DNA of 53,090 nt, taken from the IMG/VR virus record IMGVR_UViG_3300050121_000130, positions 1 through 53,090 of that record, one strand, 5' to 3'. Below are positions 27,637 to 46,722 of the stretch, in pieces; position 1 is the stretch's first letter; each line of letters begins with the position of its first letter. Origin of the DNA: a virus. The notes beneath the pieces were generated by a model, which made no database searches, was not told where the DNA came from, and saw nothing but the letters and a program-made list of their open reading frames with translations. A program made the translations under genes and the position numbers.

Positions 27637-27978
27637 ATGAGCAGAAAACAAATATGGTTAAATCCACCGCTTGAACGTCTTGCCGAACAATGCGGACAGG
27701 CCAAAGGGCGCGATGGTAAATTTTCCGCTCGTTTGGGTGATATTGTGGAGCGTTACGAGGCTATTATGGCTAACACGCCCGTCCCAGCAATGACTGATGA
27801 AGAAAAAATGATACTCGGTGCCGCTGTATGTGGAAGTGTATTATCAACAATCACAATTAAATACTTGCATGAGGGTATATCTGATCTAGGTATCCCCGGC
27901 GCAATAGAGTTGGCGGAAAAGGTACAGGAGTGGACGGCTGCTGAGCGGATCGCTGCTATTGAATCATTAAAGGTATGA
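27637..27978 (+). CDS. Hypothetical protein, 113 aa
   Basis: ATG with AAGGAGGA upstream. Helical, with a conserved-looking N-terminus (RKQIWLNPPLERLAEQCGQA). RDGKFSARLGDIVERYE resembles plasmid or phage proteins that bind DNA as small helical domains, but no family is recognised. It overlaps the zinc-finger gene by four bases (ATGA), so the two are coupled. Confidence 0.6.
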   Translation: MSRKQIWLNPPLERLAEQCGQAKGRDGKFSARLGDIVERYEAIMANTPVPAMTDEEKMILGAAVCGSVLSTITIKYLHEGISDLGIPGAIELAEKVQEWTAAERIAAIESLKV

Positions 27979-29379: not shown

Positions 29380-29412
29380 AAAAGCCTCCGATCATTTCGT
29401 CGGAGGCTTTTG
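29380..29412. terminator. Bidirectional intrinsic terminator
   Basis: AAAGCCTCCGA pairs with TCGGAGGCTTTT around an eight-base loop. It works from either side and isolates the secreted-protein gene from the attachment region. The stretch 29199-29553 holds only this and the left arm sites. Confidence 0.75.
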
Positions 29413-29431
29413 GTATAGTAGCAAACACCGT

Positions 29432-29464
29432 TTTGCTAATCCGTTTGCTAATCAGATTAGCAAA
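29432..29464. repeat. attP left arm: integrase arm-type sites
   Basis: TTTGCTAATC at 29432-29441 and 29444-29453 (12-base period) and its inverted copy GATTAGCAAA at 29455-29464. The same decamer occurs three times on the other side of the core at the same period. Confidence 0.65.
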
Positions 29465-29553
29465 ATTTAAACTTATTTAAAAATTAACCATGTGATAAAA
29501 CTCAGTAAAATAGCCACTATATAGGATTTGACTTACTCCGTGGAATGGTTTGG

Positions 29554-29603
29554 CATCGTTGACATCGATGAGGTCAGAGGTTCGAGTCCTCCTAACCCCA
29601 CCA
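29554..29603 (+). other. attP core: 3' half of a tRNA-Val(GAC)-like gene
   Basis: The anticodon arm CATCG-TTGACAT-CGATG (29554-29570) has U33, anticodon GAC and A37. The variable loop AGGTC, T arm AGAGG-TTCGAGT-CCTCC (one mismatched pair), acceptor strand TAACCCC, discriminator A and CCA (to 29603) follow. No matching 5' half (GGGGTTA) lies upstream, so it is not a functional tRNA here. Tyrosine integrases commonly use tRNA 3' ends, so insertion would rebuild the host tRNA. Confidence 0.7.
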
Positions 29604-29620
29604 TAACAAACGTAGTAAAA

Positions 29621-30859
29621 TCACGGCTTCGCAAGGTTTAACTTGCGGAGCTTTTTTATTTTGCTAATCGGTTTGCTAATCTCTTTGCTAATCTTTTTCT
29701 TTCCAAACATATCATCCATTGCCGTAGCTGTTTCGTTTTGCATATCATTTGCAACGTGCTGGTAGTAGTTGGCTGTAAAACTAGACTTCTTATGGCGGAG
29801 CTTCTTCGATACAATTTTAACGTCAATTTTTTGTCTAAGGAGCAGGGTAGCGTGAGTATGTCGCATGTCGTGAATTCGAATAACAGGCAACTTCATCTTT
29901 TCTTTGTCTTCTTCTTTAATTTTTTCGTCATTATCAATTTTGATATTTTGATTCTTAATGAATTTTATGAAATCATGATAGAGCGAATTCGGATATAACG
30001 GCGATCCGTCTTCGTGGCAACACACATATTCTATTTTTTTAAAGCACGGACCGAGCTGTAATTTATTTAATTTTTGCTGTTTCAATTCATTTTCAAGAGC
30101 AAGAATAACAACATGTGGAATTGGTATGTATCCTTCACTGCTGTCTGTTTTTAACGGGCCGAGTTCTAATTGCTTTGTTTCTCTGTTCAAACTTAAACTG
30201 TTTCTAATAAAAGCCGATCTTTCTGCTAGATTTATATCTTCCCATCTAAGACCGCATATCTCGCCACGCCGTAATCCGCACAAAAACCCCAGCAGAGCAA
30301 CTATATATAAAGATGTAGGTTTGGCTAGGTCAAGAAACCTTTGAACCTCTTCTGGCGTATATACGGCATTATGCGGGGCGTTTCGTTTCGGTGAATCAAC
30401 AGATGCACACGGGTTTTTACTGATTAACTGCCAGTCAACCGCTTTATCTAATGCTTGTTTTAAAACTGAATATTGACATTGAACCGAAGTAGGCCGCAAA
30501 CCTCTTTCTCGCTCGGTGTTTAAATATTCCTTAATTTTTAACGGGCTTAGCTTTTCTAATTCGACACTACCGATAATTTTAATGATGTTTTTAATTTTAA
30601 AGCTATAGCTTGATGAGGTCCCTTCTCTCTTATCTGGCTTTATTTCAACATCAAGCCATTTGTTTAAAAAACTCTCAACGGTAGTTTTTTCCGAAAAAAC
30701 AACTTCCCCACGAGAATAATCGGTAATTAACTCTCTCTCTTTTCGTTGAGCATCACGCAAAGACGGACCAGCATTAATCCATTTTTGCTTTTTTTTGTTT
30801 TGAGCATCGCGGTAGGTAACTATTACAGAATAGTTATCGCCGCGTTTTTTTATTGCCAT
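29621..30859 (-). CDS. int: Tyrosine-family site-specific integrase, 412 aa
   Basis: ATG at 30859 with GGGAGG upstream; the longer reading to 30931 has no ribosome site. The N-terminal arm-binding domain (about 1-70) begins MAIKKRGDNYSVIVTYRDAQ; a SAM-like core-binding domain spans about 75-165. The catalytic domain has LLGFLCGLRRGEICGLRWEDI (Arg I), HDMRHTHATLLLR (HxxR) and a C-terminal YYQHV Tyr. The extreme C-terminus has an ISK-type repeat (ISKEISKPISKI) encoded by arm-type sites. It recombines attP with the host tRNA gene. Confidence 0.93.
   Translation of the reverse strand: MAIKKRGDNYSVIVTYRDAQNKKKQKWINAGPSLRDAQRKERELITDYSRGEVVFSEKTTVESFLNKWLDVEIKPDKREGTSSSYSFKIKNIIKIIGSVELEKLSPLKIKEYLNTERERGLRPTSVQCQYSVLKQALDKAVDWQLISKNPCASVDSPKRNAPHNAVYTPEEVQRFLDLAKPTSLYIVALLGFLCGLRRGEICGLRWEDINLAERSAFIRNSLSLNRETKQLELGPLKTDSSEGYIPIPHVVILALENELKQQKLNKLQLGPCFKKIEYVCCHEDGSPLYPNSLYHDFIKFIKNQNIKIDNDEKIKEEDKEKMKLPVIRIHDMRHTHATLLLRQKIDVKIVSKKLRHKKSSFTANYYQHVANDMQNETATAMDDMFGKKKISKEISKPISKIKKLRKLNLAKP
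29626..29657 (+). terminator. Intrinsic terminator just past the attP core
   Basis: GCTTCGCAAG pairs with CTTGCGGAGC around a six-base loop, followed by six U. It reads on the plus strand from the tRNA half and lies inside the last codons of the minus-strand integrase gene. In the integrated state it would end transcription of the rebuilt host tRNA. Confidence 0.6.
29660..29693. repeat. attP right arm: three phased integrase arm-type sites within int
   Basis: TTTGCTAATC at 29660-29669, 29672-29681 and 29684-29693, exactly 12 bases apart. On the minus strand they encode the ISK triplet repeats at the integrase C-terminus. Matching copies lie left of the core. Confidence 0.65.
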
Positions 30860-41988: not shown

Positions 41989-42642
41989 ATGGACGGAATG
42001 AAACAAATTCCCGACAAGTATTTTGATCTTGCAATCGTTGATCCGTCTTATTTTAGTGGACCAGAAAGGCGCGAGTTTTATGGAAATAAAATTAGTTCAA
42101 TCGGGGTTTCTCGTTTATATAAAAAAAGTACTACTTGGATAGTCCCGACAGAAAAGTATTTTCAAGAATTATTTAGAGTATCAAGTAACCAAATAATTTG
42201 GGGTTGCAATTACTATGATTACAAATTCGGTCCTGGGCGAATAGTGTGGGACAAGGTAAACGGGGAAAGCTCATTCTCTGATTGCGAAGAAGCATATTGT
42301 AGTTTGCACAATAGTTCTCGATTATTCAGGTTTATGTGGAGTGGAATGTTTCAAGGAAAAAGCGTATCTGATGGAACGACGCAACAAGGAAATAAGAAGT
42401 TAAATGAAAAACGCATCCACCCTACCCAAAAGCCGGTTGCCCTTTATAAATGGATTCTGGCTAACTACACCACTATAGGAGATAAAATCCTAGATACTCA
42501 TGTTGGAAGCGGATCAAGCATTGTGGCTTGTTATGAATTAGGATTCGATTACTTAGGATATGAAATAGACACTGACTATTTTAATGCAGCAAGCAAAAGA
42601 ATCGAAGCGGTTAAAGCACAGGGGAGGTTGTTTGTGCCATGA
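41989..42642 (+). CDS. DNA N6-adenine/N4-cytosine methyltransferase
   Basis: Beta-class order: motif IV VDPSY (DPPY variant) near residue 18, then motif I at the C-terminal side, LDTHVGSGSS (usual FxGxG, here VGSGS). Similar residues open in frame upstream (NLNRIVNGDC) back to 41950, suggesting a non-standard ATT start; ATG 41989 is the first normal start. RIHPTQKPV before motif I is typical. It would methylate phage DNA against host restriction or act in regulation. Confidence 0.8.
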   Translation: MDGMKQIPDKYFDLAIVDPSYFSGPERREFYGNKISSIGVSRLYKKSTTWIVPTEKYFQELFRVSSNQIIWGCNYYDYKFGPGRIVWDKVNGESSFSDCEEAYCSLHNSSRLFRFMWSGMFQGKSVSDGTTQQGNKKLNEKRIHPTQKPVALYKWILANYTTIGDKILDTHVGSGSSIVACYELGFDYLGYEIDTDYFNAASKRIEAVKAQGRLFVP

Positions 42643-42830
42643 ACATGTTTGTTTTCCCCGGCCGCGTCTACGCCCTAAACGTAGTCGACGCCCTCGACAA
42701 AATCCACGAAATGATTGATACCAGAGGGCTAAAATACATCGGCCCTGTTTCACTCAGGGAATGTGACGTACAGACAAAATCAGTTATTTGGTACGAGTTT
42801 TATTGCAAGGTAGAAGAAATTGGAGCGTGA
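42639..42830 (+). CDS. Hypothetical protein, 63 aa
   Basis: ATG overlapping the methyltransferase stop (ATGA). Alpha/beta mixture (NMFVFPGRVYALNVVDAL, KYIGPVSLRECDVQTK), with no motif. It lies between two methylases and may be their partner, without direct evidence. Confidence 0.5.
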   Translation: MNMFVFPGRVYALNVVDALDKIHEMIDTRGLKYIGPVSLRECDVQTKSVIWYEFYCKVEEIGA

Positions 42831-42838
42831 TTTGACAA

Positions 42839-43630
42839 GTGGGAATAAAAATAGAATTGTTCAATGACAATTTTCAAAATTATAAAAGTTATGGTATTCC
42901 AGCAAAGGCACAGTTGGTAATTGCCGATATTCCGTACAACTTAGGCAATAATGCTTTTGCTTCAAATCCTATGTGGTACGTTGACGGCGATAATAAAAAC
43001 GGTGAAAGCAAAAACGCGAACAAGAGTTTTTTCAATACCGATAATAATTTTAATATAGCCGAATACTTCCATTTTTGCAGCAAGTTACTAAAAAAAGAAC
43101 CTAAAGAAACGGGACAAGCACCCGCTATGATTGTATTTTGCTCATTCCAGCAAACGCCATTAGTTATTGAATACGGCAAAAAGCATGGATTTGTTAACAG
43201 CTACCCGCTGTTTTTCGTAAAAAATTATTCAGCACAAGTATTAAAAGCCAATATGAAAATTGTCGGAGCTACAGAAATAGCTATGGTTTTGTATCGTGAC
43301 AAGTTACCAAAGTTTAATAATGGAAAAACCGAAACAGAAAAAGGGAAAATGGTTTTTAATTGGATTGAATGGCGCAGGGACAACCGAAAAATATATCCTA
43401 AAATTCATCCGACTCAAAAGCCCGTAAGTTTGCTAAAACAACTCGTTGAGATATTTACAGACGAAGGTGATACGGTAATAGACCCCGTTGCTGGAAGTGG
43501 AACAACATTAAGAGCATGTGCCGAGTTAAACCGAAATTGTTACGGATTTGAAGTTGATAAGATCTTTTATAAAGAAGCTGTCGATAAAATGATTAATTTT
43601 GATAGTAAAGAAGAGCAAATATTATTTTAA
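42839..43630 (+). CDS. DNA methyltransferase, second (beta-class), 263 aa
   Basis: GTG start. Motif IV ADIPY (near residue 30), then a long insert, then motif I DPVAGSGTTLRACAELNR near 218-235, with KIHPTQKPVSLL before it. Different from the first methylase in sequence and length. The DIPY variant differs from the canonical DPPY/NPPY. Target and specificity unknown. Confidence 0.85.
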   Translation: MGIKIELFNDNFQNYKSYGIPAKAQLVIADIPYNLGNNAFASNPMWYVDGDNKNGESKNANKSFFNTDNNFNIAEYFHFCSKLLKKEPKETGQAPAMIVFCSFQQTPLVIEYGKKHGFVNSYPLFFVKNYSAQVLKANMKIVGATEIAMVLYRDKLPKFNNGKTETEKGKMVFNWIEWRRDNRKIYPKIHPTQKPVSLLKQLVEIFTDEGDTVIDPVAGSGTTLRACAELNRNCYGFEVDKIFYKEAVDKMINFDSKEEQILF

Positions 43631-43649
43631 GGCAAGGTGGTGGAAATTG

Positions 43650-43772
43650 GTGCGTAAAGGTTATTCATCGGTAGGAAAAGTTTGCGGAGCTGATAAGTCC
43701 CGCTGGGAGCATTGGCATCGACAACAGCAGCAAAAGAAGTTGGTAACAAAGATCAAGAAGGTGGAAACATGA
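43650..43772 (+). CDS. Small basic protein, 40 aa
   Basis: GTG at 43650 with AAGGTGGTGG upstream. Basic, with CGADKSRWEHWHRQQQQKKL in the middle. It overlaps the next ATG by four bases (ATGA), so the pair is probably coupled. Confidence 0.4.
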   Translation: MRKGYSSVGKVCGADKSRWEHWHRQQQQKKLVTKIKKVET

Positions 43773-44032
43773 ATTTAGCAATTCACGCCCGAACATATAA
43801 TTATTTTGCCTTAACAGCTGCGATCTTAAATTCAAAATTTAGCGTTGAAGATGCAATTAATAAATTTTCGCCTGCAACTGAAAAGCATAAAGTTGATAAT
43901 TCAACGACTATTGAAATGATGCGGCTTAAGAAAACAATGACATACAAGGAAATTGGCTGCTTATACGGGATTAGAGCTGATGCTGTATATAACAGAATCA
44001 GGAGGTATAAGGGAGGACTTGCAAGTGGATGA
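43769..44032 (+). CDS. HTH protein, 87 aa
   Basis: ATG 43769 overlaps the previous stop (ATGA); AAGGTGG lies upstream. C-terminal helix-turn-helix (KKTMTYKEIGCLYGIRADAV, then YNRIRRYKGG) resembling sigma-like or phage regulatory HTH proteins. A gene read from 43712 in frame would have no ribosome site. It may be a late-gene or methylation-cluster regulator. Confidence 0.5.
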   Translation: MNLAIHARTYNYFALTAAILNSKFSVEDAINKFSPATEKHKVDNSTTIEMMRLKKTMTYKEIGCLYGIRADAVYNRIRRYKGGLASG

Positions 44033-44297
44033 TGTAAGATTTGACCTAAAATATTGGCAGCAGATTGCTAGAAATGTGGTCGGTAGTCAGGGAAAAGCTT
44101 TTGCAGTGGTCAAGAATCCAATAAATAATGAATATTTTGTGCGGTCGCTGGAATCAGCGAAGACCTTTAAGAATGAGATAGTCTGGTCCAGTGATCAACC
44201 AGAAATTAAGATCGAGCCGGTACCATTAGATATACCGTCCGGTCTACTGATTACCTACATGATAGCGGGAGGCGGTTTACATTGCGAGTTGGATTAA
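44025..44297 (+). CDS. Hypothetical protein, 90 aa
   Basis: GTG at 44025 with GGGAGGA seven bases upstream; longer reads to 43953 overlap the HTH gene. Mixed beta/helix (DVRFDLKYWQQIARN, KAFAVVKNPINNEYFVRSLE). No family recognised. It overlaps the start of the radical SAM gene. Confidence 0.5.
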   Translation: MDDVRFDLKYWQQIARNVVGSQGKAFAVVKNPINNEYFVRSLESAKTFKNEIVWSSDQPEIKIEPVPLDIPSGLLITYMIAGGGLHCELD

Positions 44298-45184
44298 TTC
44301 AAGTTGACGGTAAACTTCCTAACTTGGCACTCATGAAATTGTCGGCATGGCATAAATCACAGGGAGACGAAGTGGTTTTCCCTTATGATTATCAGGACAT
44401 GTTCGCTGGAAAAGTGGACAAGGTATATGTAGCTGTGATTTTCGACTGGAATCGGAAAAAAGCTACTAAATATGCCAAATTGGGTGCGGTGATCGGAGGA
44501 ACTGGGTGGAATTTTACAACGACCTTGCCAACTGAAATAGAATCTATGAAACCTGATTATGACCTGTATGGGATTGATTATGGTATGGGATTTACGCAAC
44601 GCGGTTGTATCAGAAGGTGCAAATTTTGTGTAGTTTGGAGAAAAGAAAGCCATATAAAAGAAGTAGCTATGCCTATAGAATTGATTAATCAAAAATCTAA
44701 AGAACTTATTTTGCTTGATAATAATTTCCTTGCATCGCCATTATGGCGTGAGAAATCTCAGCAAATTATTGATCATAAAATAAAAGTCGATTTTACACAA
44801 GGTCTTGATATTAGGCTAGTGGATGATGAGAAGTCAGAATTGTTGGCAGCAATGCGGCACCGGAAGCGAATACACTTTGCCTTTGATAATCTGCAAATTG
44901 AGAAAGAAGTACGCCATGGCATTGAACTGTTGCTTAGTCAGGGAATAAATCATGATCGGCTTTCGTTTTATGTACTTGTTAATTTTAACAGTACCATTGA
45001 GCAGGATTTGAAACGGATAGCAATACTTGATGAATATGGAGTAAATTCTTTTGTCATGGTGTACAACAAGGCAACTGCACCGCAAAAGATAAAATATTTA
45101 GCCAGGTGGTGCAATAAATATCAGACTAAAAAGTCTTGTAGTTTTAAAGATTACGATCCTCATGCTAGGAGGAAAGCAATATGA
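44282..45184 (+). CDS. Radical SAM enzyme, 300 aa
   Basis: TTG start overlapping the upstream gene. An alpha/beta N-terminus recalls a B12-binding-like fold (RVGLIQVDGKLPNLALMKLS). The radical SAM CxxxCxxC is CIRRCKFCV at about 110-118. The TIM-barrel-like remainder includes LLDNNFLAS, FTQGLDIRLV and FAFDNL. It would use SAM for a radical methyl, ring or sulfur insertion. Among methylases, DNA or RNA base modification is plausible but unproven. Confidence 0.85.
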   Translation: MRVGLIQVDGKLPNLALMKLSAWHKSQGDEVVFPYDYQDMFAGKVDKVYVAVIFDWNRKKATKYAKLGAVIGGTGWNFTTTLPTEIESMKPDYDLYGIDYGMGFTQRGCIRRCKFCVVWRKESHIKEVAMPIELINQKSKELILLDNNFLASPLWREKSQQIIDHKIKVDFTQGLDIRLVDDEKSELLAAMRHRKRIHFAFDNLQIEKEVRHGIELLLSQGINHDRLSFYVLVNFNSTIEQDLKRIAILDEYGVNSFVMVYNKATAPQKIKYLARWCNKYQTKKSCSFKDYDPHARRKAI

Positions 45185-46722
45185 AGCCTAATAGCAAATT
45201 TAGCCTATGGCGTGAAATAATAGTTGATAACTTCGCCGGTGGAGGGGGAGCAAGTACTGGAATTTCACTGGCAATTGGGCGATCAGTAGACGTGGCAATT
45301 AATCATGATCCAGCCGCAATTGCAATGCACAAGGCGAATCATCCCGACACTGAGCATTATACAGAATCGGTTTGGGATATTGACCCGCTAATTGTAACGG
45401 GTGGCCGTCCGGTAGCACTCTGTTGGTTTAGCCCAGATTGTAAGCATTTTTCTAAGGCCAAAGGTGGCAAACCAGTCGAAAAACATATTCGGGGGCTTGC
45501 ATGGATTGTTTTAAAGTGGGCCGCAAAAGTCCATCCAAGAGTAATAATGCTTGAAAACGTCGAGGAATTTAAAACGTGGGGGCCGTTACGAAAAGGTAAA
45601 CCGATAAAAAAGCTATCTGGGAAGACCTTTGCAAAATGGGAAAGCCAATTGCGGGCGTTAGGTTACAAGATTGAACATCGAGAACTAAGAGCTTGCGATT
45701 ATGGAGCCCCGACAATTCGCAAAAGATTTTTTCTAATTGCGAGGTGTGATGGCAAACCTATCGCGTGGCCGAAACCGACACACGGAGATCCAAACAGTCT
45801 AGAAGTAAAATCCGGTCGGCTGAAGCCTTGGAGAACGGCTGCTGAAATAATTAATTGGTCCCTACCTTGCCCATCTATATTTGAGCGGAAAAGGCCACTT
45901 GCTGAAAACACCATGCGGCGGATAGCCCGAGGGATTCAGAAATTCGTAATTGATTGCCCTGACCCTTTTGTGATCAAGGTAAATCATCACGGAGCAGATT
46001 TTCGAGGACAGAGTATAAAAGACCCGCTTCAAACCATTACGGCAAAGAACGGCTGGGGAATTGTGGCACCTACGCTAATTCAGTACCACGGCGAACAATC
46101 CGGCAGTGAAGTAAGAGGACAAGCCTTGAAAAATCCATTGATGGTAGTTGATTCATCACCAAGGTATGCGCTGGTGAGTAGTTTTCTGGCAAAGCATTAC
46201 GGCGGTGGCTATACAGGAGCAGGAGCAGATTTAAATGATCCGGTACCAACAGTAACAGCCGTGGATCATAATGCACTGGTTACAAGCCATCTAGTGAAAA
46301 TGAAGGGAACAAATATAGGTCAGCCAGTTACAGATCCCATACAGACTATAACGGCAGGGGGATTGCATTTTGGGGAAGTCAGGGCCTTCTTGATTAAATA
46401 TTACGGCACAGGAGAAGGTCAGTCAGTAAAAGATCCACTGCATACGGTACCAACAAAAGATCGATTCGGACTAGTTACGGTTCATGGGCAAGATTATCAG
46501 ATCGTTGATATCGGCATGAGGATGCTTGAACCAAGAGAATTATTCAATGCCCAAGGGTTTCCACCTGATTACATTATTGATATGGATTGCAATGGGAAAA
46601 AATATTCGAAGTCGGCACAGGTGGCAAGGTGCGGAAATGCAGTACCGCCGCCATTTGCAGAAGCATTAGTTCGGGAGAACCTGCCGGAGCTTTGTGAAAA
46701 CAAATACGCCAAACAAGCATAA
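45181..46722 (+). CDS. DNA cytosine-5 methyltransferase, 513 aa
   Basis: Motif I VDNFAGGGGASTG (about 15-27), motif IV LCWFSPDCKHFSKAKGG with the catalytic Cys, motif VI LENVEEF, motif VIII KRFFLIAR, motif IX-X ARCGNAVPPPFAEALV at the end. Unusually long. Between VIII and IX lie five degenerate repeats of about 33-37 residues (about 263-436; pattern GQxxxDPxxTxTA), in the target-recognition place. It methylates C5 of cytosine, probably to evade restriction. Confidence 0.92.
   Translation: MKPNSKFSLWREIIVDNFAGGGGASTGISLAIGRSVDVAINHDPAAIAMHKANHPDTEHYTESVWDIDPLIVTGGRPVALCWFSPDCKHFSKAKGGKPVEKHIRGLAWIVLKWAAKVHPRVIMLENVEEFKTWGPLRKGKPIKKLSGKTFAKWESQLRALGYKIEHRELRACDYGAPTIRKRFFLIARCDGKPIAWPKPTHGDPNSLEVKSGRLKPWRTAAEIINWSLPCPSIFERKRPLAENTMRRIARGIQKFVIDCPDPFVIKVNHHGADFRGQSIKDPLQTITAKNGWGIVAPTLIQYHGEQSGSEVRGQALKNPLMVVDSSPRYALVSSFLAKHYGGGYTGAGADLNDPVPTVTAVDHNALVTSHLVKMKGTNIGQPVTDPIQTITAGGLHFGEVRAFLIKYYGTGEGQSVKDPLHTVPTKDRFGLVTVHGQDYQIVDIGMRMLEPRELFNAQGFPPDYIIDMDCNGKKYSKSAQVARCGNAVPPPFAEALVRENLPELCENKYAKQA

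What the first reader, a model, noticed from the sequence alone, without database searches (positions are those of the whole stretch)
29432..29693. Integrase arm sites written into the integrase C-terminus
TTTGCTAATC occurs at 29660, 29672 and 29684 with an exact 12-base period and encodes ISK repeats at the end of the integrase. Two direct copies at the same period and one inverted copy (29432-29464) lie on the other side of the tRNA-like core. This is the expected layout of integrase arm-type sites, but here one arm doubles as coding sequence, so a single stretch must satisfy protein and DNA-binding needs.
Basis: partly seen in the sequence, partly recalled or inferred. Interest (0 to 1): 0.7.

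Follow-up and report, generated by a model that had tools for sequence, protein, structure and literature searches.

The report
Phage attP arm sites inside integrase gene
A temperate phage keeps the DNA docking sites of its own integrase partly inside the last codons of the integrase gene; the sites look real, but the same crowding of docking sites around the integrase stop codon turns out to be common in phages, so this is a neat example of a known arrangement rather than a new mechanism.

Summary
TTTGCTAATC occurs six times in the 53 kb window, all at 29432-29693: two direct and one inverted copy left of a tRNA-Val-like core, and three direct copies at a 12-base period inside the integrase ORF (ISK x3). 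The arm-site reading is well supported by sequence. Far-side copies are non-coding. The inner copies sit exactly 98 bases either side of the anticodon-loop centre. Relatives carry the same phased RTTAGCAA-type pairs in different coding contexts: in frame as VSK (L123, L164), in another frame ending in the arm's own TAG (L038, L042), across the stop codon (L195), or after it (L125, L170, L218, L030). L125 is 73% identical to L123, so the DNA, not the protein motif, is what persists. The 'dual constraint' part is weak: the ISK tail lies beyond the integrase fold, is predicted disordered, and relatives lack it. The architecture is not special: a repeat scan finds arm-like pairs inside, on, or just after the integrase stop in several named phages, and lambda P'3 overlaps its int stop codon. 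No binding was tested; RDF sites are not formally excluded. New member of a known kind.

The parts
29432..29441 (+). left arm site, direct copy 1 (TTTGCTAATC), non-coding
   Evidence: exact match
29444..29453 (+). left arm site, direct copy 2, 12 bases from copy 1, non-coding
   Evidence: exact match
29455..29464 (-). left arm site, inverted innermost copy; inner edge 98 bases from the anticodon-loop centre 29562
   Evidence: exact match
29554..29602 (+). core: tRNA 3' fragment (anticodon arm CATCG-TTGACAT-CGATG to CCA), tRNA-Val(GAC)-like; probable crossover in the loop 29559-29565
   Evidence: sequence inspection; no whole tRNA by ARAGORN; attB not found
29660..29669 (+). right arm site 1, coding (ISK 398-400); mirror image of 29455-29464
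29672..29681 (+). right arm site 2, coding (ISK 394-396)
29684..29693 (+). right arm site 3, coding (ISK 390-392)
29621..30859 (-). tyrosine integrase, 412 aa; R197, K237, H330, R333, H334, Y366 intact; Phage_int_SAM_3 plus Phage_integrase domains
   Evidence: Pfam, PHROG_1, alignments, fold
29625..29652 (+). terminator-like hairpin with T-run 3' of the tRNA fragment, inside the last int codons; would end the rebuilt tRNA transcript after integration (inferred)
   Evidence: number of such sites not above shuffles
29380..29411 (-). terminator-like hairpin that would end int transcription read through attP in the unintegrated genome (inferred)

Best explanation
The decamers are the arm-type binding sites of attP for the phage's own tyrosine integrase. 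The small N-terminal domain of Int would bind them while the core-binding and catalytic domains act at the anticodon-loop core of a tRNA-Val fragment. Three phased sites lie on each side, with the innermost pair placed symmetrically about the crossover. The right arm lies inside the int reading frame because attP is packed against the 3' end of int and the stop codon happens to lie past the arm. The period is four codons, so each copy is read as ISK in a disordered, probably dispensable tail. Shown here: site positions, symmetry, persistence of the DNA motif across different reading contexts, an intact integrase, a tail predicted to be disordered. Inferred: Int binding, the crossover point, dispensability of the tail.
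For: Six exact copies confined to attP, on both sides of the core, in coding and non-coding DNA. Inner copies exactly 98/98 bases from the loop centre; 91/91 by decamer edges in L038 and L042. In L123 the pair is coding (VSKSVSK); in 73%-identical L125, and in the remnant L170, it follows the stop. In L038/L042 it is read in another frame and supplies the stop TAG. In L195 it straddles the stop; in L218 it follows directly. The pair lies beside tRNA fragments in L004, L166 and L169. 4 of 398 genomes carry the pair, none the reversed control. All three coding copies use ATT AGC AAA, p about 1e-4 from the gene's own codon use, while the other ISK (residue 146) uses ATC AGT AAA. Model: beta-beta-beta-alpha N-domain (residues 1-50); lambda Int aligned over 1-380; Tn1549 Int Z 24.8. 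Arm-DNA-bind_4 in 9 of 13 members of the alignment.
Against: No footprint or integration data. Arm-DNA-bind_4 itself is not detected in the window protein. N-domain identity is not higher among integrases that share the motif than among the others (0.25 against 0.29, few sequences). attB and the host were not found. No relative above about 37% identity was found, so selection on these particular codons cannot be measured.
Confidence: 0.85

Rival explanations
1. The phased decamers are binding sites of the recombination directionality factor (excisionase) rather than of Int; such factors also bind direct repeats one helical turn apart.
For: Apl of phage 186 binds direct repeats spaced one helix turn apart, like other RDFs (abstract of PMC7498355). 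No xis gene was identified here, so its sites are unknown.
Against: Sites lie on both sides of the core with a symmetric inner pair. The same motif recurs beside integrase 3' ends in several integrase lineages. No exact copies near the early genes of the window.
Confidence: 0.09
2. The repeat is selected as protein: a basic ISK tail that contacts DNA or partner subunits, with the DNA repeat a by-product of tandem duplication.
For: Coding copies are in frame at four codons; VSK repeats occur in L123 and L164.
Against: Identical decamers, one inverted, lie in non-coding DNA on the far side. Relatives read the motif in another frame or leave it untranslated. The tail is beyond the fold and of very low confidence.
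Confidence: 0.04
3. Chance or assembly repeat without function.
For: The region is AT-rich, which raises the background of short repeats.
Against: 0 in 100 shuffles; recurrence of the motif at other attachment sites.
Confidence: 0.02

Closest known systems
Phage lambda attP (P'1-P'3) and Int
   Same: int followed by attP, arm sites on both sides of the core, same three-domain integrase fold. P'3 (AAATCATTAT, 27806-27815 as I read the sequence) overlaps the int stop codon at 27812-27814.
   Different: Lambda sites have another sequence, are imperfect, and only the stop codon plus one base is shared; here three whole sites are coding. Dependence on IHF, Xis or Fis is unknown here.
Mycobacterium phage Mask (OP172874) int-attP
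   Same: The scan finds a phased pair GTGACAATCC/GTGACAATTC inside the last int codons and a matching non-coding pair beyond a tRNA-Tyr-like fragment.
   Different: Two coding sites, a different motif, an actinobacterial host; found here by repeat scan, not footprinted.
Mycobacteriophage Pixie attP (PMC3203893)
   Same: Predicted layout: three direct sites on one side, a direct pair plus one inverted site on the other.
   Different: Different motif; my scan of the 550 bases at the int 3' end did not clearly recover these sites.
Paenibacillus phage Dash, Thermus phage Lalka8, Staphylococcus phage WIS42
   Same: Arm-like phased pairs lie on or directly after the int stop codon.
   Different: Not fully coding; other motifs. 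The Lalka8 repeat alone was not significant.
Tn1549 / Tn916-type integrases
   Same: Best fold match over residues 58-386; related N-terminal arm-binding domain in relatives.
   Different: Conjugative transposons with a different core specificity; the solved Tn1549 chains begin at residue 82 and so lack the arm-binding domain.

Membership tests
lambda-type (heterobivalent) tyrosine integrase | catalytic R-K-H-R-H/W-Y set | tested here: met
   R197, K237, H330, R333, H334, Y366 invariant in the alignments
lambda-type (heterobivalent) tyrosine integrase | core-binding SAM-like domain plus catalytic domain | tested here: met
   PF14659 and PF00589; Z 24.8 to Tn1549 Int
lambda-type (heterobivalent) tyrosine integrase | N-terminal arm-binding domain | tested here: inconclusive
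   Model residues 1-50 form beta-beta-beta-alpha and align with lambda Int from residue 14; PF14657 hits 9 of 13 alignment members but not this protein
attP with arm-type sites | repeated short sites on both sides of a core shared with attB | tested here: inconclusive
   Sites on both sides found; attB not found
attP with arm-type sites | sites bound by Int | not testable with these tools
   needs footprinting
RDF (Xis) binding sites | bound by a phage excisionase | not testable with these tools
   no xis gene recognised; not excluded

The most novel reading that the evidence does not exclude
Arm sites and the int stop codon form one evolving unit across tyrosine-integrase elements: the arm often supplies or crosses the stop codon, so loss or gain of a stop repeatedly turns arm DNA into short repeated protein tails such as ISK or VSK, which may in some lineages have gained a function.
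Probability: 0.25. Interest if true: 0.5.

Novelty: new member of a known kind. Interest (0 to 1): 0.3.

Why it matters
It gives a predicted complete attP (six identical arm sites, symmetric about a tRNA anticodon-loop core) for a phage lineage with no close named relative. It also shows that arm sites can be read off the 3' ends of integrase genes. Practical consequence: recoding or trimming an integrase ORF, or cloning attP without the int 3' end, could remove arm sites unnoticed.

Tried and rejected
Exact arm pair in viral contigs: L003 and L005 lie in unrelated coding sequence and were rejected; L004 kept. tRNA fragment in viral contigs and in 299 genomes: nothing. Direct search for the window integrase gave no close relative. 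No integrase in the L004 record. L167 and L168 look like chance pattern hits. Test for co-segregation of the N-domain with the motif: negative with few sequences. The first version of the integrase-finding script failed on its regular expression and was corrected. Omega record not held. Literature searches found no paper stating that arm sites lie inside the int coding sequence, in the open library only. The scans used 20-40 shuffles per locus, so single loci near p = 0.05 are not counted as evidence.

Full report
What is there. The window is an IMG/VR virus record of 53,090 bases with attP in its middle, so it represents the unintegrated or circular phage form, not a prophage cut out at its ends (inference). 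TTTGCTAATC occurs six times exactly, all between 29432 and 29693. Pairs at the 12-base period occur three times, against none in 100 shuffles. Left of the core: direct, direct, inverted. Right: three direct, inside the ORF of a tyrosine integrase on the minus strand (29621-30859).

The core. Between the arms lies the 3' part of a tRNA: anticodon arm CATCG-TTGACAT-CGATG at 29554-29570, then variable loop, T-arm and acceptor end to CCA at 29602. By inspection the anticodon is GAC (Val). ARAGORN reports no whole tRNA. The inverted left copy and the first coding copy are mirror images about 29562, the centre of the anticodon loop: inner edges 98 bases away on both sides (coordinates). In L038 and L042 the inner decamer edges are 91 and 91 bases from the centre of their own anticodon loop (my reading, which counts octamers: 92 and 90).

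DNA or protein? The coding copies are read G ATT AGC AAA three times. From the codon use of the rest of the gene, three copies all choosing these codons has p about 1e-4, and the only other ISK of the protein uses ATC AGT AAA. Relatives are decisive. L123 encodes VSKSVSK with GTTAGCAAATCCGTTAGCAAA; L125, 73% identical, stops six bases before GTTAGCAAATTCGTTAGCAAA; L170, a remnant of the same lineage, does likewise beside an intact tRNA-Met. L164 (L069) has VSKNVSK. L038 and L042 read the same motif in another frame (TLAID, TLATD) and end on the TAG of the second site. L195 stops on the TAG of the first site, and L218 has its pair directly after the stop. The preserved thing is the DNA motif and its spacing; the peptide is not preserved.

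The protein. AlphaFold2 on a 13-sequence alignment gives mean pLDDT 81; the last helix ends at 390 and residues 388-412, with the whole ISK repeat, are below 50. Relatives aligned to it mostly end near that helix. The fold matches Tn1549 Int (Z 24.8) and full-length lambda Int from residue 1. So the tail is most likely extra sequence, not a working part.

How unusual is it? A scan for phased decamers around integrase 3' ends, blind to the motif, found arm-like pairs in named phages: Mask inside the ORF with a matching pair beyond the core; Dash and WIS42 on or at the stop codon; phiCD418, PLE3 and a Latilactobacillus phage after it. In genomes, L187/L223 has three copies of a TGTGACCAAAA-type repeat beginning at the stop codon, beside tRNA-Trp. 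In lambda, P'3 by sequence overlaps the int stop codon. The fully coding triple array is thus at one end of a continuous range.

Limits. No binding data; attB and host unknown, although the best portal matches are mostly phages of Bacillota and gut viruses; RDF sites not excluded; no relative close enough for a substitution-rate test. The literature search covers open papers only, so I do not claim that coding overlap has never been described.

Noticed in passing
window 29417-29426: A weak seventh inverted copy (AGTAGCAAA, up to 2 mismatches) just outside the left pair; it would make the left array inverted-direct-direct-inverted.
   Followed up: partly
window 29625-29652: A terminator-like hairpin lies in the last int codons downstream of the tRNA fragment, so the int 3' end may also carry the terminator for the rebuilt tRNA gene.
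   Followed up: partly
L195, L038, L042, L187, L225 (int 3' ends): The int stop codon (TAG or TGA) is formed by the arm-like repeat itself in several unrelated integrases.
   Followed up: partly
L166 and L170 (genome G024, C1:5095283 and 5130920): Two RTTAGCAAA pairs in the same orientation 35.6 kb apart, each beside a tRNA or tRNA fragment, one next to an integrase remnant; possibly a decayed prophage or two attachment scars.
   Followed up: no
L122 (lambda NC_001416 27814-27854): The GenBank feature 'int 4' lies within the int CDS and does not coincide with the P' consensus sites read from the sequence at 27785-27815.
   Followed up: partly
L203 (phiCD418 int 3' end): Array inverted-direct-direct near int and direct-direct-inverted on the far side with motif AGGTGGCAAA, a mirror-type layout like the window's.
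   Followed up: no
window 41989-46722: Three ORFs that look like DNA methyltransferases by inspection, close together; not checked against profiles.
   Followed up: no
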